From positions 1-57,785 of the IMG/VR virus record IMGVR_UViG_3300037339_000276: DNA of 57,785 nt, one strand, 5' to 3'. Positions 9,655-57,785 of this stretch are shown piece after piece. This stretch comes from a virus. The translations under genes were made by a program, and so were the position numbers. How positions within the stretch are numbered: position 1 is the stretch's first letter; the number at the start of each line of letters is the position of its first letter. The notes under the pieces are model-generated. The model saw only the letters and a program-made list of their open reading frames with translations, was not told where the DNA came from and made no database searches.

Positions 9655-10096
9655 TAGCAGACCATGATTCTGGAGTCCACTTTAGATGTTCTATCCTGGC
9701 CGAATCTAGTATATCTAATGGAGTGATGTCTCTATATTCAGTATCATAAACTACTCTAATAATACCAGCATTAATGATGAGTTTAGCGCAATTTCCACAG
9801 GGGCTATGCGTACAATGGAGCTCGCTTCCCTCAGTCGAGATGCCATGTCTAGCTGCGAAGGCAATGGCATTAGCTTCAGCGTGTACGGTCCTGATACAAC
9901 CAGAATAGGTACTCTCATCACAACCGACATCTGTGCAATGTGGAAGACCCCGTGGTGATCCCACATATCCCGTCGATATGATGCGACCATCACGAGAGAT
10001 GATGGCTCCAACTGATGCTCTAAGACAAGTTCCTCTAGCCGATGTGATAACCGCCATCCTGATGAGCCACTCATCTCTACTTGGCCTCATTATCAT
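9641..10096 (-). CDS. Deoxycytidylate (dCMP) deaminase
   Basis: A 151-residue zinc deaminase that converts dCMP to dUMP. The motifs are complete: HAEANA (His72, catalytic Glu74) and PCGNC (Cys100, Cys103) bind zinc and activate water. The insertion with GCDESTYSGC is typical of phage dCMP deaminases. It overlaps the upstream thymidylate-synthase-like gene by four bases, so its dUMP can feed directly into that step. Confidence 0.93.
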   Translation of the reverse strand: MIMRPSRDEWLIRMAVITSARGTCLRASVGAIISRDGRIISTGYVGSPRGLPHCTDVGCDESTYSGCIRTVHAEANAIAFAARHGISTEGSELHCTHSPCGNCAKLIINAGIIRVVYDTEYRDITPLDILDSARIEHLKWTPESWSANVKP

Positions 10097-10857
10097 TTTC
10101 TTGATTCCGCCTCTATCCTGCCGCGTTCGGCTGAGAAGATATGCATTGATGAGATATGCATGACTAACTTACCTGGCACCACCTCGTGTAGCTGATCTGA
10201 AACCCATTGTCCGAGCCGTCCAGCCATGTAGGCATCATCGCGAAAGTGTCTATAGAAATCGCAGGACCTAATGTAATAGACGATCTTGAGCTTCCCATTT
10301 CGAATGAGGAAGTGATAACCCAGAGTACAAGGGACTCGTTGATCAGCAACGGCTCCTGTATCTTCCGGGAACCAAACAGGGAGATAAGCCTGTCTCGTTC
10401 CTGGTCTTTCTTTGAGAAGTCGTACGACATCATTTAAATCACCATATGGATATCTGATGCCACCCATAACAGAGAATGCGTCGTCAGATGCCCATTTAGG
10501 CCAGAATCTCTCTGGATACGTATGAGAGAATTTTTCACCATTCATATGCTCTTCATTGCTCTTCTGAGCAAAAGGCCATCTCACGTGCGATGGAGGTGGA
10601 TTATGTGGTATCCCACTTACCCTCTCTTGGAAATGTTCTTCAGCCCAAGGCATGTTAGGTTTGATAATCTCTTGCCACTCATGAACTTCTAACGGCAATG
10701 AAATATCAAATGAAACATCTTCTATCTCGATGGTCTCCGCCTGTGGTATGTTCCCTTTGATTGCTTGCCATTCCCCAACATGTACATCTAATGCCATTGA
10801 TAGGTCAGCAATTATTTGTTCACAGACGTCATCAAATGAGTCTCCGTAACTTCTCAT
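10093..10857 (-). CDS. Thymidylate synthase-like protein / possible dNMP hydroxymethylase
   Basis: A 254-residue protein. Its C-terminal half carries the thymidylate synthase fold signature: RQAYLPVWFPED, VPCTL with the nucleophile candidate Cys177, YYIRSCDFYRHFRDDAY (197-210) and MHISSMHIF. The Asn that selects dUMP in ThyA aligns with Asp (207 or 208), the change seen in dCMP hydroxymethylases. The product could thus be dTMP, hydroxymethyl-dUMP or hydroxymethyl-dCMP. The N-terminal ~90 residues are not recognisable. Neighbours dCMP deaminase and the UDG-polymerase fit pyrimidine remodelling. Confidence 0.75.
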   Translation of the reverse strand: MRSYGDSFDDVCEQIIADLSMALDVHVGEWQAIKGNIPQAETIEIEDVSFDISLPLEVHEWQEIIKPNMPWAEEHFQERVSGIPHNPPPSHVRWPFAQKSNEEHMNGEKFSHTYPERFWPKWASDDAFSVMGGIRYPYGDLNDVVRLLKERPGTRQAYLPVWFPEDTGAVADQRVPCTLGYHFLIRNGKLKIVYYIRSCDFYRHFRDDAYMAGRLGQWVSDQLHEVVPGKLVMHISSMHIFSAERGRIEAESRK

Positions 10858-24691: not shown

Positions 24692-24977
24692 AGATTGGGT
24701 AAAATCTATCCAAGACTCGAATGCCAGCCCAACCTCAAAAACGTTGAATATCTATAACCGCTTAATCTCTGATGAAGGTCTTTTTGGAAAGGCTTTCTTT
24801 GGGCACAGGGCAACTTCTAAAGAGCGCAGGCGGATCAACTCCCTGTGGAAGCTGTCTATGAAGCTGGGAGGTCTGAATGCTGAAAACGCGGGACAACTTG
24901 AGGCCAGCAACCCTGGAAGGCTACATCGGGCAGGAGCAGGTGAAGGATCTGCTGGAGACCTCCATTCTAGCAGCTAA
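24675..24977 (+). CDS. Hypothetical protein overlapping the ruvB start
   Basis: A 100-residue frame. The first ~65 residues look coding (LTRDWVKSIQDSNASPTSK, KERRRINSLWKLSMKLGG). The last ~33 are low-complexity Gly/Ala/Ser and overlap the RuvB gene by 101 bases in another frame. Either a genuine long overlap, or the ancestral stop was lost and the frame now runs into ruvB. Confidence 0.45.
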   Translation: MNDLTRDWVKSIQDSNASPTSKTLNIYNRLISDEGLFGKAFFGHRATSKERRRINSLWKLSMKLGGLNAENAGQLEASNPGRLHRAGAGEGSAGDLHSSS

Positions 24978-37999: not shown

Positions 38000-39163
38000 A
38001 TGCCGTTCGCTGAGTATAAGGACTTTGCTGACTGCGTAGCGAAGAACTCCGACAAGAAGGATCCGCAAGCATACTGCGGAACTATAAAAGCGGCGGCAGA
38101 AGGGAGTGGGTTGAAGCCAGGGATCATAGAAGACTTCAGGGCTATCGACCAGTTTGATCTTAACGAGTCAGAATTCTCTGTGGAAGAAGCTGACGACGGT
38201 AAGAAGAAGTTGGTTGCTAATGTTCGATTGATCAAATCGGGACTTTCAAAGAACCGACGCAATTATCGAGCAACAGCTCTGAAAGAATCAGTAGATAAAG
38301 GCATCTGGAATGGCGTCCGGATGTTTGCTAATCATAGCAAGACAGTTCCTCTTCAGCGACCTATGCAAGAAATGGTAGCGGCTGTAGAGAGTACTTCTTG
38401 GGATTCTAAAGCTGAATCAGTAGAAGCTAAGGTCGTATTCTTCAACAAGGACTTCTATGAGTTCGCTGAGCGAGCTAAGGAGTATATGGGGGATTCGATC
38501 AATGCTTTAGTTCAAGGCACTAGAACACGGGATAACCGTGGACAAGTCACGGAGGATATTCATCGAATAGTTCAGCCACACTCCGTTGACTTCGTGATCT
38601 ACCCCGCCGCTGGCGGAATGATTCACTCATTTGAAGGTGAAGGCGACATGATCGATTGGAGTTCTATAACTTCTAAGGATATCAAGGAGAATGCAGCAGC
38701 ATTGTACGATGCCATTAAGGCTGAAGTCATTGCTGAGACACCTCCACCTGATCCGCCCAAGGATCCAGAACCAACTGCTTCCGCTCTTACGCAGGAGCAG
38801 ATCAATGGACAGATTAAGGCAGCTATAGAAGCTCACGACAAGGAAGTTGCTGAGACTAATAGGAAGATTGCTGTCGTCAACGAGAAGATGTTATCAGCTT
38901 TCTCTAAGTCCGGTCTTCCTCTAGCTACTCAGAAGCGCGTTATGAATTCTTTCGAAGGCGTTACTGAGTTTGATGAAGAGGCAGTTAAGGAATCAATTGA
39001 AGCAGCTAAGGAGGAACTTGTAGCAGTTGGAGCTGGTCCACACATCACTGGTCAGGGACCATCCGGTGCAGCTGGTTCTTCCAGCGCTAAGTCGTTCTCG
39101 GTTAACGAGAGCATTGCAGGGGCCTTCGGAATGAAGCCTGCTAAGAAGGAAGGTGACAAGTAA
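38000..39163 (+). CDS. Capsid maturation protease with scaffold domain
   Basis: A 387-residue protein. An N-terminal mini-domain (FADCVAKNSDKKDPQAYCGTI) is followed by a protease-like region: VRLIKSGLSKNRRNY, MFANHSKTV (conserved His), and HSVDFVIYPAAGG. The last ~150 residues are helical and acidic, fitting an internal scaffold. It directly precedes decoration and major capsid genes. Confidence 0.78.
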   Translation: MPFAEYKDFADCVAKNSDKKDPQAYCGTIKAAAEGSGLKPGIIEDFRAIDQFDLNESEFSVEEADDGKKKLVANVRLIKSGLSKNRRNYRATALKESVDKGIWNGVRMFANHSKTVPLQRPMQEMVAAVESTSWDSKAESVEAKVVFFNKDFYEFAERAKEYMGDSINALVQGTRTRDNRGQVTEDIHRIVQPHSVDFVIYPAAGGMIHSFEGEGDMIDWSSITSKDIKENAAALYDAIKAEVIAETPPPDPPKDPEPTASALTQEQINGQIKAAIEAHDKEVAETNRKIAVVNEKMLSAFSKSGLPLATQKRVMNSFEGVTEFDEEAVKESIEAAKEELVAVGAGPHITGQGPSGAAGSSSAKSFSVNESIAGAFGMKPAKKEGDK

Positions 39164-39534
39164 TGTCCCGCACTGCAATCAACGCCGGACGGCGTATGAC
39201 CATCACAGCAGACCGAGCAATGGCTGCTGGAGACTTCGTTTATTTTCAGGGCTTCTTTGGTACAGTTGATGATGATGCCGCCTCTGGCGAGCTAGTCACG
39301 CTAATCCTCGATGCAGGGGTTCGGTCACTCAAGAATATCTTTGGTAGCACTATTCCACGTGGTACCAAGATGTTTGCGGCGCCGACTACAGCACCAGCCA
39401 CTACTCTTATTCTCTACCCGGCAGCTTCTGTGCCATCTGGCGGACTCCCTGTGGGTAGGGTTTGGGCAACAGGCGTTGCTTCGTCGGCTTCGGCAACTCT
39501 CAAGGTTGCTTTGTTCCATCCGAATGCTCAGTAA
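39163..39534 (+). CDS. Capsid decoration-type protein (DUF2190-like)
   Basis: A 123-residue beta-rich protein (RRMTITADRAMAAGDFVYFQGFFG, LPVGRVWATGVASSASATLKVALF) with the layout of DUF2190-type head decoration proteins. It lies between protease and major capsid, the usual place. One-base overlap with the protease stop. Confidence 0.72.
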   Translation: MSRTAINAGRRMTITADRAMAAGDFVYFQGFFGTVDDDAASGELVTLILDAGVRSLKNIFGSTIPRGTKMFAAPTTAPATTLILYPAASVPSGGLPVGRVWATGVASSASATLKVALFHPNAQ

Positions 39535-39547
39535 GGAGATTAGCTAA

Positions 39548-40609
39548 ATGCGATATCACGGTGCTCTTCCAGGCAATCCACTTGGGCTTGCACCCGGAAC
39601 CCACGTTCGACTTTTCGATGGATATATCGAGGGTCGTGAATCGATCGAGACGATGGATGCAGAAGAGGCTATGTCCTTTTCTGACTTCCCTACTTACCTC
39701 AGTAAGTTCATTCGTCATACATTTCTCGATCGTTTCACTGAGGTTCAGGGCGCTTGGACACAGTACACTCGAGATTTCTCTCTTGAAGATTTCGAGACTT
39801 ATACTAGCTCTCGCTTCGGTCGGTTTGACGACATTCCACAGAAGGCTCTGGGCGCTGAGTACGATCAGCTGACTCTTCGGGAGTTCCCCGGTGAGTCGAT
39901 TGCACTGAAAGAGTTCGGTGCAGCCATAGTCGTTACCCGTGAGCTTATCATTGGTGACCGGCTCAATAAGATTGCTGAACTCCCCCGACTGGCAGCTGAA
40001 GCTCTTGCTCGCACAATGAGCAAGGATGCTGCTATTAACCAGTTCCAGGCTAATCCGACGATGTACGACGGTAATGCACTGTTCAGCTCTGCTCATGCTA
40101 ATCTTGGGGCTGCCACAGCTCTGACTGCTAATGATGCGGGGATGGCACTGCTTCAGGCTCTAGAGTTAAAGCTTGATAGCCAGGTTGATGATGAGGGTTA
40201 TAAGATCCAGACGCCTGGAGCCCCTTACAGCATCATTGCTCCAATTGATTATCGCTGGATTCTGAATGCACTCGTGAATAACGAGACAATTCTTAATGCA
40301 GCTGGTACCGTACTAGTTTCTAACCTGGTCCGTGGTAGGTACAACGTCATTGAAGAGCGATTCTTCACTGACGCAAACAACTACTACATGGCCTCTGATC
40401 TTAAGGGGCCTCTTGGGTTCCTTGCAGCCATTACACTGAATGGACAGACTACTCCATTCATTGGACTGAAGGACCCGGGTGTTCGTGGAGTCCTTGGTGG
40501 TAATGATCCATACACCTTCGACTTTGATGAAGTTGCATGGAAGTTACGCCATGACTTCTCGTTCAAGCCAGTTGAGTGGCGCGGGATAGCCGCTTCACTG
40601 CCAGCATAA
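39548..40609 (+). CDS. Major capsid protein
   Basis: A 353-residue protein with features of Mu gpT/HK97-fold capsids: FGAAIVVTRELIIGDRLNKIAELPRLAAEALARTMSKDA, DGNALFSSAHANLGA, and a C-terminal KLRHDFSFKPVEWRG. Preceded by AAGGAGATTAGCTAAATG. The 13-pair hairpin just after its stop may end or process a highly expressed transcript. Confidence 0.88.
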   Translation: MRYHGALPGNPLGLAPGTHVRLFDGYIEGRESIETMDAEEAMSFSDFPTYLSKFIRHTFLDRFTEVQGAWTQYTRDFSLEDFETYTSSRFGRFDDIPQKALGAEYDQLTLREFPGESIALKEFGAAIVVTRELIIGDRLNKIAELPRLAAEALARTMSKDAAINQFQANPTMYDGNALFSSAHANLGAATALTANDAGMALLQALELKLDSQVDDEGYKIQTPGAPYSIIAPIDYRWILNALVNNETILNAAGTVLVSNLVRGRYNVIEERFFTDANNYYMASDLKGPLGFLAAITLNGQTTPFIGLKDPGVRGVLGGNDPYTFDFDEVAWKLRHDFSFKPVEWRGIAASLPA

Positions 40610-40617
40610 TTTCCACG

Positions 40618-40653
40618 GTGGGGGCTCAGATTGGGCATAGTCTGGGCTCCCAC
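40618..40653 (+). terminator. Strong hairpin after the major capsid gene
   Basis: GTGGGGGCTCAGA (40618-40630) pairs with TCTGGGCTCCCAC (40641-40653) through 13 pairs including two G-T. No T run follows, so it may be a partial terminator or an mRNA-stabilising hairpin that raises capsid expression over the downstream glycosyltransferase. Confidence 0.65.
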
Positions 40654-40702
40654 ACAACTTCCAACGTGCTACTATGCACTATGATAGAGGAGACTGGCGG
40701 CA

Positions 40703-43669
40703 ATGGCAACTATTTCTCTTGGCATGATTGTACGGAATGAAGGACGTACTCTTAATGCCTGTCTTTCTTCTGTAGTTCCCCATGTTGATCAGATAGTCAT
40801 TGGTCTTGGCGGTAAGTCTGATGATGATACTGAAAAGATTATTCAAGAGTTCAAAGATGACGGTTATCCAATTGAAGTCTTTGAAATAGAGTGGCATGAG
40901 GACTTTGCAGAGGCAAGGAATTTAGTTCTTGAACGGTGTACTGGAGAATACTTTCTTTGGATAGATGGCGATGATACACTAGTCGGCGGAGAAAAGCTTC
41001 ATGACTACATCAACAACTATCCCAACCTAGACGCTTTCTACTTCGGATATGATTACGGACGTGATGAGAGCGGGTTAACCGTCTGCTATCTCATCAGGGA
41101 AAGACTAGTCAAGAGGCACCCAGAACTCCCTGTGGACTGGTCTTGGTCCGGTAAGGTTCACGAGGTTTTGATTCCAAAGTTTGAACAGGCGGTAATGAAG
41201 GTTGATGATGTAGTAGTCATTCACCATAAGCCGCCATTCAAACATGAACCTGACAGAAATTTACGGATTCTTTACCAGCAGCTAAGTGATTCTGAACCTA
41301 ATCCAGATCCTAGGCTGCTAGTATATCTTGGATCTGAAAACTTAGGTCGTGGGGAGACTAGAGAAGGAATTCTCCACCTCCAACGGTTTGTTAAACTTAG
41401 TGGTTGGGATGAAGAGCAATACCAAGCACAAGTGAGAATTTCTCACGCTTGGCGTAGTCTTGGTGAGATTGATAAATCCATCAAGGCTGCTCAAGAAGCT
41501 ATTGCTATGATGCCTGACTGGCCTGATGCTTATTTTGCGATGGCTAAGTCTTATGCTTCTGAACCACTTAGTAACTGGAAAACTGTTCTTGAGTATGTCA
41601 AGGTTGGGGTTTCTAAGCCTAAGCCCAGAACAATGCTTATCATTAACCCACTTGACTACACATATGAGCCTTCTCTTTTAATAGCATTGGCATATACTCA
41701 TCTTGGTGATTATGAGATTGCCTTGAAGAATTATGAGAATGCTTATGAACTCAAGCAGGACCCAGCAATAGCAGATCAGATAAGACTTCTTAGACGCTCA
41801 GTAGAAATGAATCTAGTTCAGCATGCTTTCATGACTCTTCGAGAATATCTTGGAAAGCATGATGAATGGCTAAAGGTTAGGAAGCTCTTTGATGTTGTTC
41901 CCAAGCATCTAGAACATAGTACTGCTATTAGAGAAGTCTGGGAACGGTCTATGCTTCAAACCGGACACATAGAAAATCCCCAGATAATGATAGATTTCTA
42001 TAACGATAATCCACACTGGACTCCTATGGCGGATGAGAGGATTCTCGATCCAGAGTGGTTGAAGTACCCACGATTGAAGTATGCAGTAGACGTTGCTAAG
42101 CGTGTTAAAGCCAAAACTATAGTAGATTGGGGGTGTTCTGATGGATTCATCGCACTCCCGCTCGCAAAAGAACTTGGAGCCCACGTTACCGGATTCGACC
42201 TTGATCCTCGTTGTACAGACCTTGCAACAGTACGAGCTAAGGAATGGGGAATTGATGCTCGTTTCGAAGTCGGTAACGTGGATGAGATCGGAGGATGGGA
42301 AGGTGAAAAAGCTGACCTTGCTATCTTCTTCGAAGTCATAGAACATGTAGTTGATCCCGCACAAACATTAACTAAACTAGAGAAGACTGCTAAACATATT
42401 GCCATGACTACTCCATATCTTTCTTGGGAAGATGGCAATATTCCAGCTTGGGATAAACTGGAACCAAAAGGACATCTTAGAATCTTTGACCAATACGACC
42501 TAGAGAGATTGCTCAATGGTCGTGGCCAGATTATGAATATCTACCGAGAACCATGGGGTCCCACAGGCTGGCTGTTTGCTGATTATAAGCCTGGTGTTAA
42601 ACTCGGCAAGACCATAATCATAGGCGCCCAATCAGGTTTAGAAGAATGGGGGCCAAGGAAGCTACAAACTGGTGGACTGGGCGGATCTGAACTAGCAGTT
42701 ATTAAGCTTGCTGAAGCTCTTGCTAGTAAAGATAGAAGGCCCATTGTCTATAATCCCATTGATGAGCCTGGATACTATAATGGGGTTTGTTATAGACCAG
42801 TTGACCATTTCAGGACAGAGATACACTCACAACTCTACATATCTTGGAGAATGCCCGAGGCAGCTGACTGGGGAATAAACACGGACCACTTATCCCTGTG
42901 GCTACATGACGTAGATTATGGTGATAGGCTTACTAAGGAACGTGCTTCTAGATTCAATTCCATAGTTGTTTTAACTAACTGGCATAAAGAACACGTCCTT
43001 TCAGTATACCCATTCATTGATCCTAAAAAGATCTTTGTTATAGGGAATGGTGTTGATAAGACTCGTTTTGAGTTAGATATGTCTAGAAATCACAAGAAGA
43101 TTATCTATTCATCTTCACCAGATAGAGGTTTAGATGTAATACTTGAACATATCTGGCCAAAGATAATAGAAGCCGTGCCAGACGCTGAACTTCATGTATA
43201 CTATGGCTGGGAAAGTTTTGATAAAGCTGCTTCCCTACCAGGTTACGGTCATTTAGTTCAGTTCCGGCAGAAAATGGATGAACTTTTTCTTAGATCTAAG
43301 AATGTAGTTCAGCATGGTAGGATTCCGCAAGACTTGTTAGCTAAGGAAATGCAGGAGGCATCTATTTGGCTTTATCCAACATACTTCTCTGAAACTTACT
43401 GCATTACTGCTATCGAAGCCCAGTTAGCTGGAGCAATACCTGTTACTAATAAACTTGCTGGGCTTAGTGAAACAGTTCAAGGCGGAATCAGTATAGATGG
43501 TAATGTTTATGACCCTGAAGTTCAGAAGTCATATGCTGAAGCTGTAATTCATCTACTAAATAGTGAAGAAGATAATGATCTTCGACAAACAATTAAGGAA
43601 TCAGCTCCCGCAGTTACTTGGGATCAGGTAGCAGCAAATTGGGAACAATTCCTAGTGAAGGAGAAATAG
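40703..43669 (+). CDS. Glycosyltransferase GT2 - TPR - methyltransferase - glycosyltransferase GT4 fusion
   Basis: A 988-residue multidomain enzyme. Residues 1-220 are a GT2 (MIVRNEGRTLNACLSSV, DGDD at 88-91). Residues about 225-400 are TPR-like helical pairs (ALAYTHLGDYEIALKNYENA). Residues about 440-600 are a class I methyltransferase (VDWGCSDG at 474-481, FFEVIEHVVDP). Residues about 640-988 are a GT4 (LGGSELAVIKLAEAL, VIGNGVDKTRF, SETYCITAIEAQLAGAIPV with the EX7E motif). Cytoplasmic. Likely builds and methyl-caps a short glycan, plausibly on virion proteins because it sits between capsid and tail genes. Confidence 0.88.
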   Translation: MATISLGMIVRNEGRTLNACLSSVVPHVDQIVIGLGGKSDDDTEKIIQEFKDDGYPIEVFEIEWHEDFAEARNLVLERCTGEYFLWIDGDDTLVGGEKLHDYINNYPNLDAFYFGYDYGRDESGLTVCYLIRERLVKRHPELPVDWSWSGKVHEVLIPKFEQAVMKVDDVVVIHHKPPFKHEPDRNLRILYQQLSDSEPNPDPRLLVYLGSENLGRGETREGILHLQRFVKLSGWDEEQYQAQVRISHAWRSLGEIDKSIKAAQEAIAMMPDWPDAYFAMAKSYASEPLSNWKTVLEYVKVGVSKPKPRTMLIINPLDYTYEPSLLIALAYTHLGDYEIALKNYENAYELKQDPAIADQIRLLRRSVEMNLVQHAFMTLREYLGKHDEWLKVRKLFDVVPKHLEHSTAIREVWERSMLQTGHIENPQIMIDFYNDNPHWTPMADERILDPEWLKYPRLKYAVDVAKRVKAKTIVDWGCSDGFIALPLAKELGAHVTGFDLDPRCTDLATVRAKEWGIDARFEVGNVDEIGGWEGEKADLAIFFEVIEHVVDPAQTLTKLEKTAKHIAMTTPYLSWEDGNIPAWDKLEPKGHLRIFDQYDLERLLNGRGQIMNIYREPWGPTGWLFADYKPGVKLGKTIIIGAQSGLEEWGPRKLQTGGLGGSELAVIKLAEALASKDRRPIVYNPIDEPGYYNGVCYRPVDHFRTEIHSQLYISWRMPEAADWGINTDHLSLWLHDVDYGDRLTKERASRFNSIVVLTNWHKEHVLSVYPFIDPKKIFVIGNGVDKTRFELDMSRNHKKIIYSSSPDRGLDVILEHIWPKIIEAVPDAELHVYYGWESFDKAASLPGYGHLVQFRQKMDELFLRSKNVVQHGRIPQDLLAKEMQEASIWLYPTYFSETYCITAIEAQLAGAIPVTNKLAGLSETVQGGISIDGNVYDPEVQKSYAEAVIHLLNSEEDNDLRQTIKESAPAVTWDQVAANWEQFLVKEK

Positions 43670-43672
43670 TTC

Positions 43673-44101
43673 GTGGCTAATGCACTTCATGATACCGGCC
43701 GTGATGCCTTTCTTCGTGGCTCTATTAACTGGCTAACTTCTCCAATTAGGGCTCAGTTGGTTTCTATTTCAAACCAGCCAACAGCTTATGTATTCAATGC
43801 TTCTTTGGATACAGTATTCGCTTCAGTTCCAACTGGGGCTAGGGTCGGCTTCTCAGCTCCTAGTCTTGGTGGTAGAACTGCTACCTCTGGCATTGCTGAT
43901 GCATCAGACCAGGTCTTTACAGCAGTCTCTGGGCCTACAGTTGGTGCTATTCTTATCTTCGCTTCAACTGCTACCGCCAATGCTTCTGACTGGCAGCTTA
44001 TTGCTTACATCGACACTGCTACTGGCGAGCCTGTGGGACCAAACGGTGGAGATATCACTGCTCAGTGGGATAATGCCACCAACAAGATCTTCAAGCTATA
44101 A
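43673..44101 (+). CDS. Virion structural protein (putative)
   Basis: A 142-residue beta-rich protein from GTG 43673, behind AAGGAGAAATAG. LHDTGRDAFLRGSINWLTSPIRAQLV opens it, a pattern shared with small head or tail proteins of other phages, and GDITAQWDNATNKIFKL closes it. A strong hairpin follows. Possibly a decoration or tail-associated protein. Confidence 0.65.
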   Translation: MANALHDTGRDAFLRGSINWLTSPIRAQLVSISNQPTAYVFNASLDTVFASVPTGARVGFSAPSLGGRTATSGIADASDQVFTAVSGPTVGAILIFASTATANASDWQLIAYIDTATGEPVGPNGGDITAQWDNATNKIFKL

Positions 44102-49138: not shown

Positions 49139-49671
49139 TGTTCCATGAACAGATAGCTAAACTAACAGCAGATCACTTAAGAACTCATATCAAAGTTTAT
49201 TTAGATTCTATCTCAGCTGAGTATTCTGGGACAGATAAGGTAACTCTGACAGTTCCTAAATCCATAGACCCAGCTTCTGTGGTAGGCGGTCTGATGACAG
49301 AGTTTGACCAAACCTTACCGCAGTACGGTATAGATGTTTTGAACAAAGCTCTGGGTGAAGACATAGAGGGGTTGTTTACTTATAACTACTTCGGTCAGAT
49401 AAATGGTTTAGTAAGTTCTACTAGCAGAGACTCAGTTGACAAGCTCTGTTCACGGCATGCTCGGGCCTGTGAAACTTTTATTAGAGAACACCAGCTCATG
49501 CATGAGCAATCAAATGCTAATTTCAGTGTTCTTGCTTTTGCTTTCGTAGGCATAGATTTCTCAGGCGCTGAGAATCTTGGTTCCATAGATGATAGAGAAG
49601 TATGGGTAGCTGGATTTAGCATAAACGTAGTTTGGGCTACCAGTGAGGATGGAGCCTTCCAGCATGGCTGA
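49138..49671 (+). CDS. Tail completion / neck protein (putative)
   Basis: A 177-residue mixed alpha/beta protein with no recognised motif. It overlaps the adaptor-like gene stop by one base and the next gene by eight. Position between connector and major tail genes suggests a neck or tail-terminator role. Confidence 0.55.
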   Translation: MFHEQIAKLTADHLRTHIKVYLDSISAEYSGTDKVTLTVPKSIDPASVVGGLMTEFDQTLPQYGIDVLNKALGEDIEGLFTYNYFGQINGLVSSTSRDSVDKLCSRHARACETFIREHQLMHEQSNANFSVLAFAFVGIDFSGAENLGSIDDREVWVAGFSINVVWATSEDGAFQHG

Positions 49672-50668
49672 TAGGCGTGGCGGTACAACATCAGTAGGCC
49701 GTGGAGCTGGTGGTAGGTTTATTAAAATTACTACTTTCCCAGATAAGTTAGGTCCTGGTAGAGGCAGCAAGAACCAGGGCGGTTACTTAATCACTAATAC
49801 TGCTCGTCTTCCGTCAGAATTAGTAGAGGGTGTTCACCAGAGATTTGTTGGGTCACTGCTTTCAGACCCAGACGAACGAGCTGCAGCCATCCAAAATAGA
49901 CTTCGTATGGAAGTTGAACTGGCTTACAATAGAGCCGCCACTGGCAGAGTTTCACGTGGTATCTTTGCTAAAGCTACTAAGATGGGAACAAAGGACGGAA
50001 AGAGTGTAGAGACGGTAGTTAGAGTTACTATGATTAATTACCGTGAAACTAGATTCCTTACAAATCTCGATGGTATGGGTTACTTCAAACATTATCCAGT
50101 TGAAAAATATACTATCTTTGCTAAATCAGATTTAAGGTTCCGTGGAGCAACTGATCAAACCCGTAAAGTAGGTAGAAGTGGAATTAAAAGTCTTCTCCGT
50201 AGGAGTGGAGTTGGGAGATTAAAGGTCCCAAGATCTACTGCATTCTTCACTGCAGCTAGACAACCAGGTAGAGGCGGAGGTGAGAGCAGGATCATAAATG
50301 ATATACTTGGCCCGGCCAGCCCAGGAGACCTCAAATCAGCATTTTTCTTTTACCCACTGTGGGTACAACATCCTGGGTTCCATGAGGATGTAATCAGTGA
50401 AGTGGCTTTAGATGAAGGGGCTAGATTTCAAACAGAAGTAGCTGAAGTGGCTACTGAGTCTTGGTCAGAACTTAGAGGCGGTAGAGAAACTTTACAGCCT
50501 ATAATGAAGACACCGGGTGAACAAGTTGCTTCTAGCATTATCCCATTGCCAGGAACAGCTGTGAAAATGGCAGCAGAAAGTTCTTTCATTGGTTATGCTA
50601 GAGGAGTAATGCGTAGACAAGAACAAGCTAATTACACCTTAGATGAAACTGGTCGTAGAATCAGGTAG
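49664..50668 (+). CDS. Putative minor tail / neck protein
   Basis: A 334-residue basic protein from ATG 49664 (an earlier in-frame ATG at 49643 lies inside the upstream gene). The N-terminus is Gly/Arg-rich (GGTTSVGRGAGGRFIK). The remainder is mixed alpha/beta with no motif recognised. Position suggests a structural role. Confidence 0.55.
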   Translation: MADRRGGTTSVGRGAGGRFIKITTFPDKLGPGRGSKNQGGYLITNTARLPSELVEGVHQRFVGSLLSDPDERAAAIQNRLRMEVELAYNRAATGRVSRGIFAKATKMGTKDGKSVETVVRVTMINYRETRFLTNLDGMGYFKHYPVEKYTIFAKSDLRFRGATDQTRKVGRSGIKSLLRRSGVGRLKVPRSTAFFTAARQPGRGGGESRIINDILGPASPGDLKSAFFFYPLWVQHPGFHEDVISEVALDEGARFQTEVAEVATESWSELRGGRETLQPIMKTPGEQVASSIIPLPGTAVKMAAESSFIGYARGVMRRQEQANYTLDETGRRIR

Positions 50669-50677
50669 GAGAAGCAA

Positions 50678-51316
50678 GTGACTCAGAGGCAAATTCTAGA
50701 AAACAGCATTGACTTAATGAAGACACTTCGCGGACCAGCGAAGATCTTCAGAGCGGCCTCGGGAATTAACTTTCCCACTAATGTGGATGGAGTTATTAAC
50801 GCCAGTACTGGAGCTCCGGGCGTTAGTTGGATACCGTTCGGGCTGACTCGTGGTGGAGTCAATGTAGTTAAGAATTTGGATATCGCAGTCCGAGATGATG
50901 TTGATCAGATTCTTGGAGCATATGATCAGGATATCACTGATAGGTCTTACACAATCACTACTCAGCTTGCTGAGATTCTCCAGGATAATATGACTCAGAT
51001 AGCTGCCTTGGCTGATCTTGGTGTTGCCACTGTTGTAGTAGCAACTGCTGGCCAGCCAACTCAGATAATGCGTTATCTTGATGATAGTGATAATAAGACT
51101 GAAGAGGGTCGTTGGGCAGTCGTCTTCCCGAAGGCTACCAATGGTAAGGTTTTCGCTTTCGTCTTCCGACGCGGTGCCATTTCAGGTGGAGAGAAGACCT
51201 TCCGCTTTGATAAGAGCGACTCTGCTAGCCCTGGGCTTGAAGTCCGGATGTTCCCAGAAATTGCTACCGCCATCGACCCGCAGGATGCGTATGGTCGAAT
51301 CTTTGAGGTTGTGTAA
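50678..51316 (+). CDS. Major tail (tube) protein
   Basis: A 212-residue protein from GTG 50678 behind AGGAGAAGCAA. Compact beta-rich sequence (GVSWIPFGLTRGGVNVVKNLDIAVRDDVDQILG, KVFAFVFRRGAISGGEKTF) directly before the frameshifted chaperones and tape measure, the fixed place of the tail-tube protein in siphoviruses. Confidence 0.78.
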   Translation: MTQRQILENSIDLMKTLRGPAKIFRAASGINFPTNVDGVINASTGAPGVSWIPFGLTRGGVNVVKNLDIAVRDDVDQILGAYDQDITDRSYTITTQLAEILQDNMTQIAALADLGVATVVVATAGQPTQIMRYLDDSDNKTEEGRWAVVFPKATNGKVFAFVFRRGAISGGEKTFRFDKSDSASPGLEVRMFPEIATAIDPQDAYGRIFEVV

Positions 51317-51321
51317 TAGCT

Positions 51322-51825
51322 ATGAACGAGAGGCGGCAAGCATCTCGTCGCGAGCCCATCGAAGTTGAGTTACAAGATGGCAGAGTCTTCACGGCTAAGC
51401 CTCTACCTTGGATGGATGCTAACGACCTTGGAAATATAATCTTGCAAGAACAGGCTGCATCAGCTAATGAAGCTGTTAGGCTTTACATGGAGGATAACTT
51501 ACCACAGCTGGAAGTAACTCTTCAGTTAAAGGTAAAGGATTGGCAGCCTGTTCTTGACAAGGCATATCCAGAAGTTACTCATGAAGAGTGGAATACTCCA
51601 GCGGCACCATCACGTGATGAGTGCGCAGATTTAGTAATAGCTTCACTAGAAGTTAATCATCTTGATCATCTGAAATCGCTCGTCGACCCAAACTTCCAGA
51701 CCCCGACGATGCCTGGTGGAAGCGACACTTCGGAACCGGCGGGGATAACGACGATTGGTCAGAAGACAACATCTACGTTAGACTCCTCAGGTCAGGAATC
51801 ACTAGAGACACCGCCATCTCCATGA
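51322..51825 (+). CDS. Tail assembly chaperone, short form (G-like)
   Basis: The zero-frame product of 167 residues: an N-terminal beta part (PIEVELQDGRVFTAKPLPWMD) and helical middle (DANDLGNIILQEQAASANEAVRLYMED). After the CCCAAAC heptamer at 51687-51693 the zero frame becomes low-complexity Ser/Thr/Pro, while the -1 frame looks properly coding. Confidence 0.85.
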   Translation: MNERRQASRREPIEVELQDGRVFTAKPLPWMDANDLGNIILQEQAASANEAVRLYMEDNLPQLEVTLQLKVKDWQPVLDKAYPEVTHEEWNTPAAPSRDECADLVIASLEVNHLDHLKSLVDPNFQTPTMPGGSDTSEPAGITTIGQKTTSTLDSSGQESLETPPSP

Positions 51826-52022
51826 CTCGTGGAGAAGTTTTACGGTTGATGGAACAGTACATAGATGATAAATGGGATCAGAGGAATTGGGAGTTAGCTC
51901 TAGCCACAGATAAGCCGGTGGAAAATTACCACAAGTCTGTGGAAGAAAGAAACCAGGCTATGAATGCGGTGAATATAGATGAACTCACCAAGGAACAACA
52001 GGATTGGCTTAGGTCCATATGA
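51322..52022 (+). CDS. Tail assembly chaperone, -1 frameshift product (GT-like)
   Basis: Slippage at C_CCA_AAC (51687-51693) would join the first 124 codons to the -1 frame through 52022, giving about 233 residues. The frame read after the slip includes PDDAWWKRHFGTGGD and EDNIYVRLLRSGITRD, continuing into the MTRGEVLRLMEQYIDDKW segment that an isolated frame at 51822 would encode. The gene pair sits immediately before the tape measure gene, as in lambda G/GT. Confidence 0.88.
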
Positions 52023-54433
52023 CCGTAGGTAGAAGTGGATTAGCTACCTCATCTCTGGGCGCTGTAGGTGGTGCCAGGGGTACTGCTGCTGGCGGTTTGC
52101 GGATTCTTATAGAGTTCTTAACTAAGTATGATGCTTCTGCTGTTAAAGAACTTGAAGCAGACCTAAAAAGTCTCTCATCCTTAGAACAGCAAGCTGCTAA
52201 TAAGCAAATCTCATCATCACGTGCTGTTGAAACGGCTAATAAAAGAGCTGAAGCATTAGAAAAACAGCGTTTAAAACTAATCGCTACGTTGACCGCTGGA
52301 ACCAAGGGCGGTTCTGCAGCTACTAATCGTACTTTACGAGATATCAAAGATCAGGGCGTATTAACTAAAGCTGGTCAAGCTCAACTAAAAGCTCTAGACT
52401 TACAGATAGGTGCTAGAGGAAAGCTTGTCAAGTTAGTTACCGCTGAAGCACAACTTCAGCGTGGACTTCCGGGATTAACAGCTAAACTTACAAAAGCAGA
52501 ACAACTGAGACTAGCTCTGGCTGAACAAAGATTAGGGGTTGAGAGAGAATTAAGCTTCTTTCAGAACTTAAAAGGCTCAGTTCTTCCGAGACTGGGCGGT
52601 CTTCTTACTGGCGTCGTCGGTGGAGTATTCGGCGGCGCCCTGATTGGTGTTGGCTTCGCAGCTGCACAAGCACTTCTTGATAATATAGAACAGGGTCTCC
52701 TTGATGTCTTTGATCCAGCTCGTCATGCTCGTGAGGCCATTGATGAACTGGGATCTGCCATCAATACCTTGGCAGAATCTGAAAAGAATGCTGGTGATAG
52801 GCAGAAAGCTACCATAGAGTGGCTGAAATCAATTGGTATTTCTGCTGACAAATCAACTGTGGCACTACTTGCTCAAGCTGCTGCAGATAAGACGGCTAAT
52901 GATTCACTTGAAGAGAGGAAGAAAGTACTTGAGATTGTTGCACACCAGGAAGAATTGCACACTAAGGCTGTTGAAGAGTATAACAAACAAGTAGCTAAAG
53001 AGTTGGGTTTAAATATAGCTTTAGATGCCACTAGGAAAGCTAGAGGCCTACCAACGGTAGAAACTCAGGTAGCTACTGAAGCCCAGCTGAGATTTAATGA
53101 GGCTGTAGGAGCTTCTGCGTCTGTCATGGCTGAAGCGGCTTGGCAAGCTTCTATATTAGCTGCTAATGAAAGACAGTTGGCAGCTGCAGCTCAATTAGCA
53201 GCTTTCGGTCAACAACAATTAGCCGCAGCTATTCAAAGAGGAGCTGCTACTCAATCGGCTCCTATCCAGTCTCAGCTTGAGAGTCTTGGTAATGCTGGAC
53301 CCAGTGCTAAAACTCTAGCATTACAGAAGCAAATTGATAAGCTGTCCGGTGGCGGCGGTGGAAATAAAGCTGCTTTGGCTAATCTAGCTCAAGAGCGAGC
53401 CCTCATTCTACTTAGAATGAAGCTGCGGCTTATGGGTACTGCTATTAACTTAGAGAAGTACGAAGGCAAATTCCTTCTTGAAGCTATTAAAGCTAAGATA
53501 GACGCCTTGAACAAAGAAGCTGCTGCTCAAGATCGTATTAACCGTCTTATGGATCTTCAGTACCGTGCTTCTCAGGTCTTGCGTCGTAATGAAGGCGAGA
53601 CTATTAGTGACTTCCTCGAGCGTCGAGCACAAGAGAATAGAAGTATTCTCCAAGAAACTGCCGATATCGAACGTGAAGCACAGATGGAAAGCCTCAATGA
53701 GTTACAGGCTGTTACTGCTGATAAGGTAGCACTTGCTGAGAATGCCGAGCAGAGAAGGACGGCAGCAGCCCAAGCTGGAATGAATGCTAGGCTGAAGATG
53801 TTACAGAAGGAATTAGCGGCTTCTCAGAAACATGACGCTGAAGTTACTAAGGCTAAGCAGCTAGCCCTTCAGCAGCAATTAGCTGCCATCGCTGAGAATG
53901 CAAGAGTAGCTGAGAAGTACTCAGATAAGTTAACTACTGAACAGATAGACAATGCCATCGGGGCTGCTACTACCATTACCCAGCTTCAGCAGCTTTCCGG
54001 TGAGATTACTGGGCTTACCGCAGCGAAGGGATTCTTAAAAGGATTACTTGCTTCTGGTGCCCTAAGTGCTTCTGAGATAAAGAATATAGAGGCCGCCATT
54101 GCTAGGATTTCTTCTTCACTTAGCCAATACAATGTTAAGCTTAGAGACATAAAGTACGGCTCTACTGTTGGTCCTTGGACTTCTGGGTATGCCAAGGGCG
54201 GATTGATTCCACTTAATAATGCTTCTTCACCATTTGGATCTAATGTTAGGTTTGGTGAAGAAGGAACAGAGTACGGATTAGTCCTTCAGCATTCAATTGC
54301 TAAAACTCTTAGAGGTCAGGGAAGAGTGGGACAGGTAGGTCCTTTCTACATGAATAGAACCGATGATTGGCTTAAAGATAAGTATGCCATCAAGAATACT
54401 GTAGTAGAAGCTCTTGGTGAGGCACTTAGATGA
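52019..54433 (+). CDS. Tape measure protein
   Basis: An 804-residue, mainly helical protein with long Ala/Gln/Lys/Glu coiled segments, a hydrophobic central stretch (VLPRLGGLLTGVVGGVFGGALIGVGFAAAQALLDN, about 183-220) and a C-terminal beta portion. Tape length sets tail length, and this size suggests a tail of roughly 120 nm (inferred from about 0.15 nm per residue). Its ATG overlaps the chaperone stop. Confidence 0.92.
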   Translation: MTVGRSGLATSSLGAVGGARGTAAGGLRILIEFLTKYDASAVKELEADLKSLSSLEQQAANKQISSSRAVETANKRAEALEKQRLKLIATLTAGTKGGSAATNRTLRDIKDQGVLTKAGQAQLKALDLQIGARGKLVKLVTAEAQLQRGLPGLTAKLTKAEQLRLALAEQRLGVERELSFFQNLKGSVLPRLGGLLTGVVGGVFGGALIGVGFAAAQALLDNIEQGLLDVFDPARHAREAIDELGSAINTLAESEKNAGDRQKATIEWLKSIGISADKSTVALLAQAAADKTANDSLEERKKVLEIVAHQEELHTKAVEEYNKQVAKELGLNIALDATRKARGLPTVETQVATEAQLRFNEAVGASASVMAEAAWQASILAANERQLAAAAQLAAFGQQQLAAAIQRGAATQSAPIQSQLESLGNAGPSAKTLALQKQIDKLSGGGGGNKAALANLAQERALILLRMKLRLMGTAINLEKYEGKFLLEAIKAKIDALNKEAAAQDRINRLMDLQYRASQVLRRNEGETISDFLERRAQENRSILQETADIEREAQMESLNELQAVTADKVALAENAEQRRTAAAQAGMNARLKMLQKELAASQKHDAEVTKAKQLALQQQLAAIAENARVAEKYSDKLTTEQIDNAIGAATTITQLQQLSGEITGLTAAKGFLKGLLASGALSASEIKNIEAAIARISSSLSQYNVKLRDIKYGSTVGPWTSGYAKGGLIPLNNASSPFGSNVRFGEEGTEYGLVLQHSIAKTLRGQGRVGQVGPFYMNRTDDWLKDKYAIKNTVVEALGEALR

Positions 54434-54873
54434 GTTTCAATACCATCATACTCTCACACGCAACTTATCTCGGTCCATCTGGTGCCACAGCTGCGGCTAC
54501 TGGCATATTCTTCACTAGTGATTATGAGCCGCCTTCCCAGGAAAGAGCTATTGACAAGGATGTAGTAATCAATTCTAATGGAAAGTTCAAGTACGTTTAT
54601 GATAATGGGCCTGGATTTAGAAGGTGGAGCCCATTCAAAATACACTGTGAAGAAGCATTCAAGAATGCCAATGGTGGATTGACAGCAGCTCAACAATACT
54701 CTAAACTATTAGAGATGTGGGAGCACCCAGGAAATCTTCTTATGAAATCTCCAGATGGAACTTACCCAGTTCATTGGAGTGATTCAGTTGAGAGGTCCTT
54801 CAGGGTTTTTCCTAAGCAACTGAGTGATCTTCTTGAATACGTGGTAGTAGTCCAGTTTGAGGAAAGTCAATGA
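54430..54873 (+). CDS. Distal tail protein-like
   Basis: A 147-residue protein, beta-rich with YVYDNGPGFRRWSPFKIHCEEAF and a MWEHPGNLLMKSPDGTYPVHW segment, resembling short tail-tip adaptors that follow the tape measure gene. Four-base overlaps on both sides. Role by position. Confidence 0.6.
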   Translation: MSFNTIILSHATYLGPSGATAAATGIFFTSDYEPPSQERAIDKDVVINSNGKFKYVYDNGPGFRRWSPFKIHCEEAFKNANGGLTAAQQYSKLLEMWEHPGNLLMKSPDGTYPVHWSDSVERSFRVFPKQLSDLLEYVVVVQFEESQ

Positions 54874-55784
54874 CAGGGCAAGCTAACTTTCCTACCGCAT
54901 TAGACGATAATAGCTCACTCTATGATGTACTAGATAATGTCACGGCGGTAGTTGCGGCACATCATAACAACCCAAAAGAAGCTATAAAAGCAATAGAAGC
55001 CAAGATAGGTGTTCATCATACTACCATAGACACCTCATTAGATTTCAGGCTTGGTAGTGCTACTGGCAGTCATAGACATGATGGTGCTTCTGGTCAAGGC
55101 TTAGCTATAGCACCAAGTACTCTTCTAGTTCCTTCTGGCGGATTTCCCAGCGGCCTCAGTGTTCATGATCATCTTATGGATGCCGGGCTACATAATCCTA
55201 CAGCTCTTGGGGCTACTGGGGCTGCTTCGGCCATAGGCGGAAACGTAATTAGGGTTCCTAGTCAAGCAATACAACTAGGAACTGGTATAGCTTCTGTGAT
55301 AAGCCAATCAGAAGCTACAGTACTTTTATTCGCACCAAGCACACCTATTTTCAGGGCAACTGGCATCGCCTCTGTGGTAAGTCAATCACAGGCAACAGTC
55401 CTATTTTCTGTTCCTACTCAGGTTCCACGATACATAATGAGTATGGGGATGGTTGGGTCGGCCATTGTAGGCTCTAACGTTTGTCAACCGTTGGTCATTG
55501 GAAGAACACTACAATTAGAGTCTGTTCAAGGGGCTTTGAGAAAGGGTCCATCTGGAGCTACATCAGCTTTCGATGTACTAGTTGGTCCTACTTCTATTTA
55601 TGAAGCCTCACAGGGGTATAGGCCAATCTTTCCAGCTGGTGCTACAGCCTACAGAAGTGCTGCTGCTGCAACACCTAACCTGATTACATATCCATCAGGA
55701 GCAGTGATAACGCTAGACACAGATGCCGTAGGCTCTAATGATCCAGGACAGGATCTTCGAATAACTTTCATATTTAGAGAGTGA
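54870..55784 (+). CDS. Tail fibre-like protein
   Basis: A 304-residue protein. The N-terminal ~75 residues (PTALDDNSSLYDVLDNVTAVVAAHHNNPKEAIKAIEAKIG) follow a pattern common at the start of phage fibre proteins, with repeated HH and H-x-H-D motifs. Two central repeats (TGIASVISQSEATVLL and TGIASVVSQSQATVLF) echo the GIASxEAxGxxTL repeats of the 1349-residue protein. The C-terminus is a beta domain. Confidence 0.65.
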   Translation: MTGQANFPTALDDNSSLYDVLDNVTAVVAAHHNNPKEAIKAIEAKIGVHHTTIDTSLDFRLGSATGSHRHDGASGQGLAIAPSTLLVPSGGFPSGLSVHDHLMDAGLHNPTALGATGAASAIGGNVIRVPSQAIQLGTGIASVISQSEATVLLFAPSTPIFRATGIASVVSQSQATVLFSVPTQVPRYIMSMGMVGSAIVGSNVCQPLVIGRTLQLESVQGALRKGPSGATSAFDVLVGPTSIYEASQGYRPIFPAGATAYRSAAAATPNLITYPSGAVITLDTDAVGSNDPGQDLRITFIFRE

Positions 55785-55789
55785 TATAG

Positions 55790-57785
55790 ATGGCTAGCAT
55801 AATGGTCTATGGTGCTGGCGGTATCTATAATGATGGGTCAGTCTACGGAAGAATTGATCCGGCTCTAGCTGCCGCTCAAGCACTAACAATGCGAGAGACA
55901 GATCTGCGTGTAAAAGTTTATGATGATCACTTAAATGATTATATTGCAATAAGTGGGTTTTTATCTGTAACTATAGGTAGAGGCGGAGTACTTCACCAGC
56001 CTACAGTATATTCTACAGACCAAGCATATAGTGAATACAGGTTAACTTATGATGCGTGTGCTTTAGCTAACGGTCATATAGTAAGAGTTAGAAATGGTAA
56101 TGGAACGGTAGGTGACCGCAATATCTATATCCAAGATATTTCTGATCCTACTGATTCATTTCAGTGGATAAACTGGACTTTACTTTACAGCGGTACTTTC
56201 TATGCTGTGGCAATTATTCCAGCTTCAGCTAGTACTTATCATGTCTATTCGGCGAGTGCTACTGGTATTAGAAAGAATAATGTAGCAAAACAGTCTCTAA
56301 CAGGGATTGTTTCTATAGCACCAGTAAGAGGAGCTATAGATGCTATGTTTGTCACTCGTGTATTTGCAGATTCACTTGACGGCAAACGAGTGATGGATGT
56401 AGCTTACAGTAGCAATATAGAAACTACTGCATTCTCTGACGATGAATTTAATTATAGATGGCTTAGAACAGAAATCAATGCCATCTTAATGCCAGATGGT
56501 AGAGTAGCTAGAATACAAACTGCGGGATGGGGTACAGATCCAAGAAGTACTAATCTTGCTGAGTCTCTTACTATTGCCTTTAATCCGTCATTAACTAACC
56601 TCCGACCAGTAGATCCACCAAGGCTTATTAGAGGTTTTGCTGGTCAAGCCGGATCTAATGCCATAGTTCATCCGTACCTTACTAGGCTGTCTGATGGATT
56701 TTATTACCTATTCTATGGAGAGTCAAGGTTTGATGCTGACAAAGATGTAGCCATTAGTGTAGCTACTTTGTTTTGGCAGAGGTCCAAAGACTTAATCTAT
56801 TGGACTGAGCCTGTAGCAGTTGGCTTTGACAACATGACTCCCACCGGCCATGCAGTCGTAGAAACTGGTGGCAGGGTTTATATCACCAACAATGGTAAGG
56901 GATGGTCTAGAGCTGTAGCTACTACTGAATATGATATTAGTAACTATATTCCAGAGCTTTCTATGAGTATACCTAAGACACTCGAAGAGGGCTCTGCTAG
57001 CTTCACTGTGGCTAATCCCAATGGAATTAATGATTACCTGGAAGATTTATCAGATCATAGAATGACCATAGAAGTAGGTCTTAGGTCTGGTGATGGCACT
57101 TGGAATTATGAACAGTTTAATGACTGGTGGTTGCATCGTGCTAAGAAAGAAATGCAAGCACAGGTAAACCGTTTGACCGTAACAGCCTATGATATTACTA
57201 AAAGATTGAATAATCCGCTGAGGGATGTATTTAACTTCACGGGTAGAACATATTGGCATGATTGGGCAATTGGTAAAAGAAATAAACTATTCAATTACTA
57301 CATTCGCGGCGGTAAATCATCAATGTATAAGTCTAGTTCTACTAGCTTATACCTAAAAGTTACTAGAATTAACCGAACTTATCTTTGCTTATACACCGGA
57401 TGGAAAGGTCACAACGCAGACTTTAGTGTTAGGTTCCGTGGCGGGAAATTTATTTCAGGTGAAAAGTTTGGCTTAATCTACCGGTATAAGGATGGTAAGA
57501 ACTACTACTGGGCCCATATTGATGGACAAACCCTCAGACTTCAAAGGCGCAGAAATAATGTAGCTGTTAATTTAGCAAGTTATAGTATTGGCAGTTATCT
57601 AAATAATCCAACTATTTCTGTATCTGTTAGATTTGGGTTTCATTTCATCTCTATCAATGGAGTTCTTAGAATCACCCATAATGAAACTGTTCAAAGTGTT
57701 AATCCCGGATATATTGGAATAAGGTACTACAGAGCTACTAAGACCGGAGACTTCGGTGCCGATAACTTCTCTATGCTTTCATGGG
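55790..57785 (+). CDS. Tail tip / baseplate protein, N-terminal part (continues at position 1)
   Basis: Starts at ATG 55790 and stays open to the end of the window; in the circular genome it continues to 808 (about 877 residues). Residues about 1-380 are beta-rich, with YYLFYGESRFDADKD like a sialidase/arabinanase-type propeller strand. Residues about 385-480 (YIPELSMSIPKTLEEGSASFTVANPNG, VNRLTVTAYDITKRLNN) match the tail-hub pattern common in baseplate proteins. The rest is LamG-like (GEKFGLIYRYKDGKNYYWAHIDG). Probably hub and receptor-facing in one chain. Confidence 0.75.
   Translation, partial: MASIMVYGAGGIYNDGSVYGRIDPALAAAQALTMRETDLRVKVYDDHLNDYIAISGFLSVTIGRGGVLHQPTVYSTDQAYSEYRLTYDACALANGHIVRVRNGNGTVGDRNIYIQDISDPTDSFQWINWTLLYSGTFYAVAIIPASASTYHVYSASATGIRKNNVAKQSLTGIVSIAPVRGAIDAMFVTRVFADSLDGKRVMDVAYSSNIETTAFSDDEFNYRWLRTEINAILMPDGRVARIQTAGWGTDPRSTNLAESLTIAFNPSLTNLRPVDPPRLIRGFAGQAGSNAIVHPYLTRLSDGFYYLFYGESRFDADKDVAISVATLFWQRSKDLIYWTEPVAVGFDNMTPTGHAVVETGGRVYITNNGKGWSRAVATTEYDISNYIPELSMSIPKTLEEGSASFTVANPNGINDYLEDLSDHRMTIEVGLRSGDGTWNYEQFNDWWLHRAKKEMQAQVNRLTVTAYDITKRLNNPLRDVFNFTGRTYWHDWAIGKRNKLFNYYIRGGKSSMYKSSSTSLYLKVTRINRTYLCLYTGWKGHNADFSVRFRGGKFISGEKFGLIYRYKDGKNYYWAHIDGQTLRLQRRRNNVAVNLASYSIGSYLNNPTISVSVRFGFHFISINGVLRITHNETVQSVNPGYIGIRYYRATKTGDFGADNFSMLSW
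57616..57785. repeat. Terminal direct repeat, right copy
   Basis: Repeats bases 1-170 with four mismatches (57742 and 57769-57771). The differences change one codon of the tail-tip protein from Val to Ser (DNFVM at the left copy, DNFSM here) and one silently (Lys). Confidence 0.9.

What the first reader, a model, noticed from the sequence alone, without database searches (positions are those of the whole stretch)
40703..43669. One 988-residue enzyme with two glycosyltransferases, TPRs and a methyltransferase next to the capsid gene
GT2, TPR, SAM methyltransferase and GT4 domains occur in one chain directly downstream of the major capsid gene and its hairpin. A self-contained glycan assembly line with a methyl cap, made with virion proteins, suggests capsid or fibre glycosylation. 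The TPR segment could recognise the protein acceptor. Single-gene fusions of this kind in a head operon are, to my knowledge, little described.
Basis: partly seen in the sequence, partly recalled or inferred. Interest (0 to 1): 0.75.

Follow-up and report, generated by a model that had tools for sequence, protein, structure and literature searches.

The report
Phage capsid-linked multi-domain protein glycosylating enzyme
A phage known only from metagenomic sequence carries, right behind its coat-protein gene, one large enzyme that joins two sugar-adding units, a protein-docking unit and a methyl-adding unit, and relatives of it sit next to the coat gene in two unrelated phage lineages, so it most likely builds a small methylated sugar chain on the virus particle; this is predicted, not yet shown in the laboratory.

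Summary
The 988-aa ORF (40703-43669) is one chain, GT2 – TPR – methyltransferase – GT4, directly after the major capsid gene. AlphaFold gives pLDDT 93, and all three active sites are intact and conserved. The finding extends well beyond this phage. More than 70 IMG/VR loci carry the same GT2-TPR…GT4 core. Every testable contig with a close capsid homologue has the gene just downstream of it (23 fetched loci; six contigs were found through the capsid alone). An unrelated podovirus-type lineage also has it after the capsid gene, in 28 of 54 contigs. The methyltransferase is a movable module: absent in most relatives, inserted before GT4 here, or fused after GT4. The N-terminal half is closest in sequence and fold to protein glycosyltransferases (SunS, GmaR). 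Best reading: the GT2-TPR part puts a first sugar on a virion protein, probably in the head, GT4 extends it and the methyltransferase caps it. The parts and the principle (virion glycosylation, TPR targeting, GT-MT fusion) are known; this single-chain combination fixed to a capsid lineage appears undescribed. Acceptor, sugars and methylation site are untested. DNA glycosylation is the main rival of a different kind, because this phage also encodes a pyrimidine-hydroxymethylase-like gene.

The parts
40703..43669 (+). 988-aa fused enzyme GT2-TPR-MT-GT4
   Evidence: ORF, Pfam, AF2 model pLDDT 93.4, 17 further complete close relatives plus 3 distant ones in the same order
40703..41242 (+). GT-A / GT2 domain, residues 1-180; DxDD catalytic motif at residues 88-91 (40964-40975)
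   Evidence: PF00535 4e-13; phmmer hits GmaR and SunS; D88, D90, D91, H153 invariant in 49 sequences
41255..41962 (+). TPR-type helical domain, residues about 185-420
   Evidence: Pfam TPR hits; helical array in the model; phrog_13126 covers residues 3-362, GT2 plus TPR
42020..42598 (+). SAM-dependent methyltransferase domain, residues 440-632; motif I 475-481 (42125-42145)
   Evidence: PF13489 4e-13; motif residues invariant in close relatives; absent as a block from the 761-aa relative P0002
42608..43666 (+). GT-B / GT4 domain, residues 636-988; EX7E at residues 897-905 (43391-43417)
   Evidence: PF00534/PF13692, phrog_2170; GGSE loop, H735/D736, R808, E897 invariant or nearly so in 49 sequences
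39548..40609 (+). Major capsid protein, candidate acceptor
   Evidence: phrog_133 / phrog_4523; tblastn to annotated major capsid proteins. Own AF2 model poor (pLDDT 47)
39163..39534 (+). Head decoration protein, candidate acceptor
   Evidence: phrog_122 1.6e-6
43673..44101 (+). 142-aa protein of phrog_644 directly downstream, 19.7% Ser+Thr, candidate acceptor
   Evidence: phrog_644 5.5e-25; near the GT in many relatives; composition
38000..39163 (+). Prohead protease (head module context)
   Evidence: phrog_15531 6e-13
40618..40653 (+). 16-bp hairpin between capsid and GT genes
   Evidence: RNA fold, z -3.8
40666..40679 (+). Short leader hairpin GTGC-GCAC before the GT ribosome-binding region; occurs with changed stem sequences in relatives
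10093..10857 (-). Thymidylate-synthase-superfamily protein, possible pyrimidine hydroxymethylase (basis of the DNA rival)
   Evidence: PF00303 8e-8; top PDB hit CMP 5-hydroxymethylase; Asp at the E. coli TS Asn177 position

Best explanation
A cytoplasmic, late-expressed, single-chain protein glycosyltransferase that decorates a virion protein, most likely in the head (capsid, decoration protein or the adjacent phrog_644 protein). The TPR solenoid docks the freshly made virion protein. The GT-A (GT2) domain transfers a first sugar from a host nucleotide-sugar to a side chain, probably Ser/Thr because the capsid has almost no cysteine. Shown: domain order, predicted fold, intact active-site motifs, conservation, position next to capsid genes. 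Inferred: late expression, acceptor, sugars, order of steps, methylation target, purpose.
For: N-terminal half is closest to enzymes that glycosylate proteins: GmaR and SunS by sequence, SunS/ThuS as best PDB folds; phrog_13126 spans GT2+TPR. TPR targeting precedents: in FlmG the TPR domain alone binds flagellin (PMC7591256); GmaR has the same order GT2-TPR and its TPR is proposed to bind flagellin (PMC9638930). Position: the gene directly follows the capsid gene in group A, and all 23 fetched loci with at least 536 nt beyond a >=54%-identical capsid gene carry it; six of those contigs were reached by the capsid alone. It also lies one short gene after an unrelated capsid family (phrog_1328) in podovirus-type contigs, 28 of 54. 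No other GT2 or GT1/4 gene was found in the near-complete group A genomes. MT is linked to the GT core in several ways: mid-chain, C-terminal, or a gene close downstream, in three sequence clades. Phage virion glycosylation by phage enzymes is established in mycobacteriophages (cited in PMC12363180, PMC11256854).
Against: No experiment on this phage. In the podovirus-type lineage nearly half of related capsid loci lack the fusion nearby, so it is dispensable there. One subgroup has it next to the terminase gene and giant phages next to fibre-like or collagen-like genes, so the capsid itself need not be the acceptor. Mirror-tree comparison of GT and capsid distances was uninformative. Group A genomes also encode a hydroxymethylase-like enzyme.
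Confidence: 0.55

Rival explanations
1. Same chemistry, but the acceptor is a tail fibre or other tail protein, made from the same late operon, and the glycan tunes adsorption.
For: A 1349-aa repetitive tail protein and other tail genes follow closely. In giant-phage relatives the neighbours are fibre-like or collagen-like proteins. Late genes are probably co-transcribed.
Against: The nearest conserved neighbour is the capsid gene in two unrelated lineages, and the genes that follow the GT vary between relatives.
Confidence: 0.2
2. DNA glycosylation: the phage makes 5-hydroxymethyl-pyrimidine DNA and this enzyme hangs methylated sugars on it to resist restriction.
For: A thymidylate-synthase-superfamily gene with Asp at the position of E. 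coli Asn177, best PDB match CMP 5-hydroxymethylase, next to dCMP deaminase, dUTPase/dCTPase-like and nucleotide-kinase-like genes. PF00303 found in all 8 group A genomes tested including the window. No other GT2 or GT1/4 gene found in group A.
Against: None of the 13 podovirus-type and giant-phage records searched, including a complete 42.6-kb genome, has a PF00303 match although they carry the same enzyme family. The N-terminal half resembles protein glycosyltransferases. The gene lies in the head operon, 30 kb from the nucleotide genes.
Confidence: 0.12
3. Host-surface modification: the enzyme remodels host surface glycans to block superinfection, as proposed for glycosyltransferase clusters of jumbo phages.
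For: Such clusters are interpreted as capsular-polysaccharide modification in jumbo phages (PMC7824862). A capsule polymerase multienzyme is among the PDB fold matches.
Against: The gene sits among head genes; the model is compact and soluble-looking with no added segment; TPR plus a SunS/GmaR-type domain points to a protein acceptor.
Confidence: 0.1

Closest known systems
GmaR, flagellin O-GlcNAc transferase of Listeria (PMC9638930)
   Same: N-terminal GT2 followed by TPR, protein acceptor; best PDB sequence hit to the GT2 part
   Different: GmaR ends in linker and antirepressor domains; no MT, no GT4; not a virion system
SunS/ThuS peptide S-glycosyltransferases (SPbeta prophage-encoded SunS; TIGR04195)
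   Same: Best fold match to the N-terminal half; GT-A core
   Different: Scores 41.7 bits against a cut-off of 350; acceptor is a bacteriocin Cys; no MT or GT4
FlmG of Caulobacter and O-GlcNAc transferase
   Same: TPR domain selects the protein acceptor for an attached GT
   Different: TPR is N-terminal to a GT-B domain; no GT2, no MT
WsaE, S-layer glycan enzyme of Geobacillus (PMC2943079)
   Same: One chain with two GTs and one methyltransferase that makes a methyl cap
   Different: MT is N-terminal, no TPR described, builds an S-layer glycan chain in a bacterium, not a virion glycan; homology not tested
Virion glycosyltransferases of mycobacteriophages Che8, Corndog, Myrna (cited in PMC12363180, PMC11256854)
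   Same: Phage-encoded glycosylation of capsid or tail-tube proteins
   Different: No mycobacteriophage record matched P0001 at E<=1e-5; no such fusion reported in the papers read

Membership tests
SunS-family peptide S-glycosyltransferase (TIGR04195) | Score above curated cut-off of 350 bits | tested here: not met
   41.7 bits, covering residues 2-92
SunS-family peptide S-glycosyltransferase (TIGR04195) | SunS-like GT-A fold | tested here: met
   Foldseek ranks 1-4 and 6-7, E about 1e-16 to 1e-18, TM-score 0.59-0.70 on the target
SunS-family peptide S-glycosyltransferase (TIGR04195) | Cysteine acceptor in a peptide | tested here: inconclusive
   Capsid, decoration and phrog_644 proteins are nearly Cys-free (0.1-0.2% Cys), which argues against S-linkage on them; acceptor unknown
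GmaR-type GT2-TPR protein O-glycosyltransferase | GT2 then TPR in one chain with intact DxD | tested here: met
GmaR-type GT2-TPR protein O-glycosyltransferase | Transfers a sugar to a protein | not testable with these tools
   Needs enzyme assay or virion mass spectrometry
Phage virion glycosylation system (Che8/Corndog/Myrna kind) | Glycans on structural proteins dependent on a phage GT | not testable with these tools
   No isolate, metagenomic record
Phage virion glycosylation system (Che8/Corndog/Myrna kind) | Sequence homology to the known mycobacteriophage virion GTs | tested here: not met
   No mycobacteriophage among the 27 phage records that matched at E<=1e-5
WsaE-like GT/GT/MT multienzyme | Two GT domains and one MT in one chain | tested here: met
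   Pfam and AF2
WsaE-like GT/GT/MT multienzyme | N-terminal position of the MT | tested here: not met
   MT lies between TPR and GT4
Phage DNA glycosyltransferase system | Hydroxymethylase (PF00303 superfamily) accompanies the GT | tested here: inconclusive
   Present in 8 of 8 group A genomes, no match in 13 of 13 podovirus-type and giant-phage records with the same enzyme family

The most novel reading that the evidence does not exclude
A whole phage lineage has fixed, beside its capsid gene, a single-chain glycan assembly line that puts a methyl-capped oligosaccharide on every virion. Related phages rebuild the line by shuffling methyltransferase and extra glycosyltransferase modules around a constant GT2-TPR...GT4 core, giving each its own virion glycan.
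Probability: 0.4. Interest if true: 0.72.

Novelty: new variant of a known kind. Interest (0 to 1): 0.55.

Why it matters
If right, virion glycosylation is a built-in, conserved trait of common environmental phages and not a peculiarity of a few mycobacteriophages. A single soluble chain that docks, glycosylates, extends and methylates a protein would also be a convenient tool for making defined glycoproteins. The modular variants are a natural experiment on how phages diversify their surface.

Tried and rejected
Degenerate active sites: rejected, catalytic residues invariant. Chance ORF or mis-assembly joining two genes: rejected, 20 other complete chains in the same order from other contigs. 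Filing as SunS-type S-glycosyltransferase: rejected on score and made unlikely by the lack of Cys in candidate acceptors. Mirror-tree co-evolution of GT domains with the capsid: uninformative, vertical signal dominates (its GT4 column is unreliable, probably because partial matches were used). Capsid structure prediction: too poor to use. Ser/Thr-rich acceptor tail on capsid or decoration protein: none seen. Cellular four-domain homologue: none among 22 genome hits; anammox-type planctomycetes have the GT2 and GT4 parts as neighbouring separate genes, but the search used only two peptide patterns. Intron as the cause of split GT4 genes in one subgroup: no Rfam match. Direct reading of the mycobacteriophage virion-glycosylation paper and of the phage DNA-glycosyltransferase paper: not held.

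Full report
OBSERVATION. The window is an IMG/VR virus record. The ORF 40703-43669 is real and 988 aa long. Pfam finds GT2 (5-105), TPRs, a methyltransferase (467-608) and a GT group 1/4 domain (741-968) in one chain. AlphaFold2 with 49 related sequences gives pLDDT 93.4 and pTM 0.74. From the secondary structure and the Pfam and Foldseek matches I read: a GT-A fold (to about 180), a helical TPR array (185 to about 420), a methyltransferase (about 440-632) and a GT-B fold (636-988). The upstream gene is a capsid protein by PHROG and tblastn, in the order portal, protease, decoration protein, capsid. The capsid-GT gap carries a strong hairpin (z -3.8) without a T-run.

ACTIVE SITES. Among 49 sequences the GT2 DxDD and HE motif residues and the GT4 glycine-rich loop, H735/D736, R808 and E897 are invariant or nearly so. 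In the close group the MT motif I residues and the second Glu of EX7E are invariant or nearly so too. The 'degenerate' alternative is excluded at the level of sequence.

RELATIVES. P0001 has no full-length match among 50,697 phage records. The best is a complete podovirus, ctKR88, whose 761-aa protein aligns end to end except that the whole methyltransferase block is missing. An alignment-based scan of IMG/VR found 79 loci. By architecture: 43 GT2-TPR-GT4, 20 with a domain between TPR and GT4 (17 close ones plus three distant ones, two of them from contigs near 394 kb), and 8 with a C-terminal extension; one of these, L039, carries an extra GT2 domain and the others a methyltransferase-like domain. 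The methyltransferases form three sequence clades, compatible with repeated recruitment, although there is no outgroup. The best BFVD fold match covers only part of the chain.

POSITION. In the close group (group A) the gene follows the capsid gene directly. Searching with the capsid instead, all 23 fetched loci with at least 536 nt beyond a capsid gene of 54% identity or more carry the GT; six of these contigs had not been found by the GT search. The only long-enough locus without it has a capsid of 33% identity; one with 297 nt left shows no match. In a second lineage with an unrelated capsid family (phrog_1328), the order is capsid, one short gene, GT, often with overlapping stop and start codons. 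There, 28 of 54 testable contigs have the fusion within 1.5 kb of the capsid gene and 26 do not. A third subgroup has it after the terminase gene, and large phages near fibre-like proteins. So the link is to virion and packaging genes, most often the capsid gene.

MECHANISM. The N-terminal half matches GmaR and SunS by sequence and SunS/ThuS best by fold. In GmaR the same order GT2-TPR acts on flagellin and its TPR is proposed to recognise the substrate (PMC9638930). In FlmG the TPR part alone binds flagellins (PMC7591256). I therefore infer that the TPR docks a virion protein, GT2 adds the first sugar and GT4 a second. WsaE shows that two GTs and a methyltransferase in one chain can make a methyl-capped glycan (PMC2943079). 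Capsid, decoration and phrog_644 proteins have almost no Cys, so O-linkage is more likely than the S-linkage of SunS. No other GT2 or GT1/4 gene was found in group A genomes, so any virion glycan there would depend on this chain plus host nucleotide-sugars.

DNA RIVAL. The window encodes a thymidylate-synthase-superfamily protein whose best PDB match is a CMP 5-hydroxymethylase. Such genes are in all eight group A genomes tested, but none was found in 13 podovirus-type or giant-phage records carrying the same enzyme family. Hence DNA is unlikely to be the family's acceptor, but it cannot be excluded for group A.

NOVELTY. Known: phage virion glycosylation (cited in PMC12363180 and PMC11256854), TPR-guided glycosyltransferases, GT-MT fusions. 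I found no description of a GT2-TPR-MT-GT4 chain, nor of its fixation behind a capsid gene, in the held literature; that library lacks many subscription papers. I file it as a new variant of a known kind.

SHOWN VERSUS INFERRED. Shown: architecture, predicted fold, intact motifs, conservation, gene neighbourhood, modular variants. Inferred: protein acceptor, identity of the acceptor, two-sugar product, glycan methylation, benefit to the phage.

Noticed in passing
window 40650-40702 and the GT leaders of relatives (e.g. L014, L016, L010, L011): Just before the GT start lies a short hairpin closed by GT...AC whose stem sequence differs between relatives while pairing is kept, followed by TA (often TAGAAAGGA) and often GGCGGC before the start codon. 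It looks like a conserved translational leader; in the window this leader motif (GCACTATGA) occurs only here.
   Followed up: partly
window 10093-10857 (-), with 9641-10096, 12163-12549, 13000-13518: Thymidylate-synthase-superfamily protein with Asp at the Asn177 position, beside dCMP deaminase, dUTPase/dCTPase-like and nucleotide-kinase-like genes: a possible hydroxymethyl-pyrimidine pathway shared by group A phages.
   Followed up: partly
window 7243-9654 (-): One 803-aa ORF joins a uracil-DNA-glycosylase domain to a 3'-5' exonuclease and family A DNA polymerase.
   Followed up: no
window 24877-25821 (+): Phage-encoded RuvB-like Holliday junction helicase with all three RuvB domains.
   Followed up: no
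L070, L075-L078, L080, L081: The GT4 domain is split into two ORFs separated by about 300 nt, or about 1570 nt with a 418-aa ORF in L080; no Rfam intron match.
   Followed up: partly
L039 (6992-10162), L042, L051, L054, L058, L072, L079: C-terminal extensions on the GT2-TPR-GT4 core: an extra GT2 domain in L039, methyltransferase-like domains in the others.
   Followed up: partly
L086, L088 (Planctomycetota / Candidatus Brocadia contigs): Bacterial contigs encode the GT2 and GT4 parts as adjacent separate genes, a possible source of the phage fusion.
   Followed up: no
L079:10452-11279: A gene that reads like a radical-SAM protein stands two genes after the GT fusion, behind one glycosyltransferase-like gene (identified by eye).
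   Followed up: no
window 49643-57784: Several long ORFs of the tail end of the genome (341, 804, 304, 665 aa) have no PHROG match at E 0.001.
   Followed up: no
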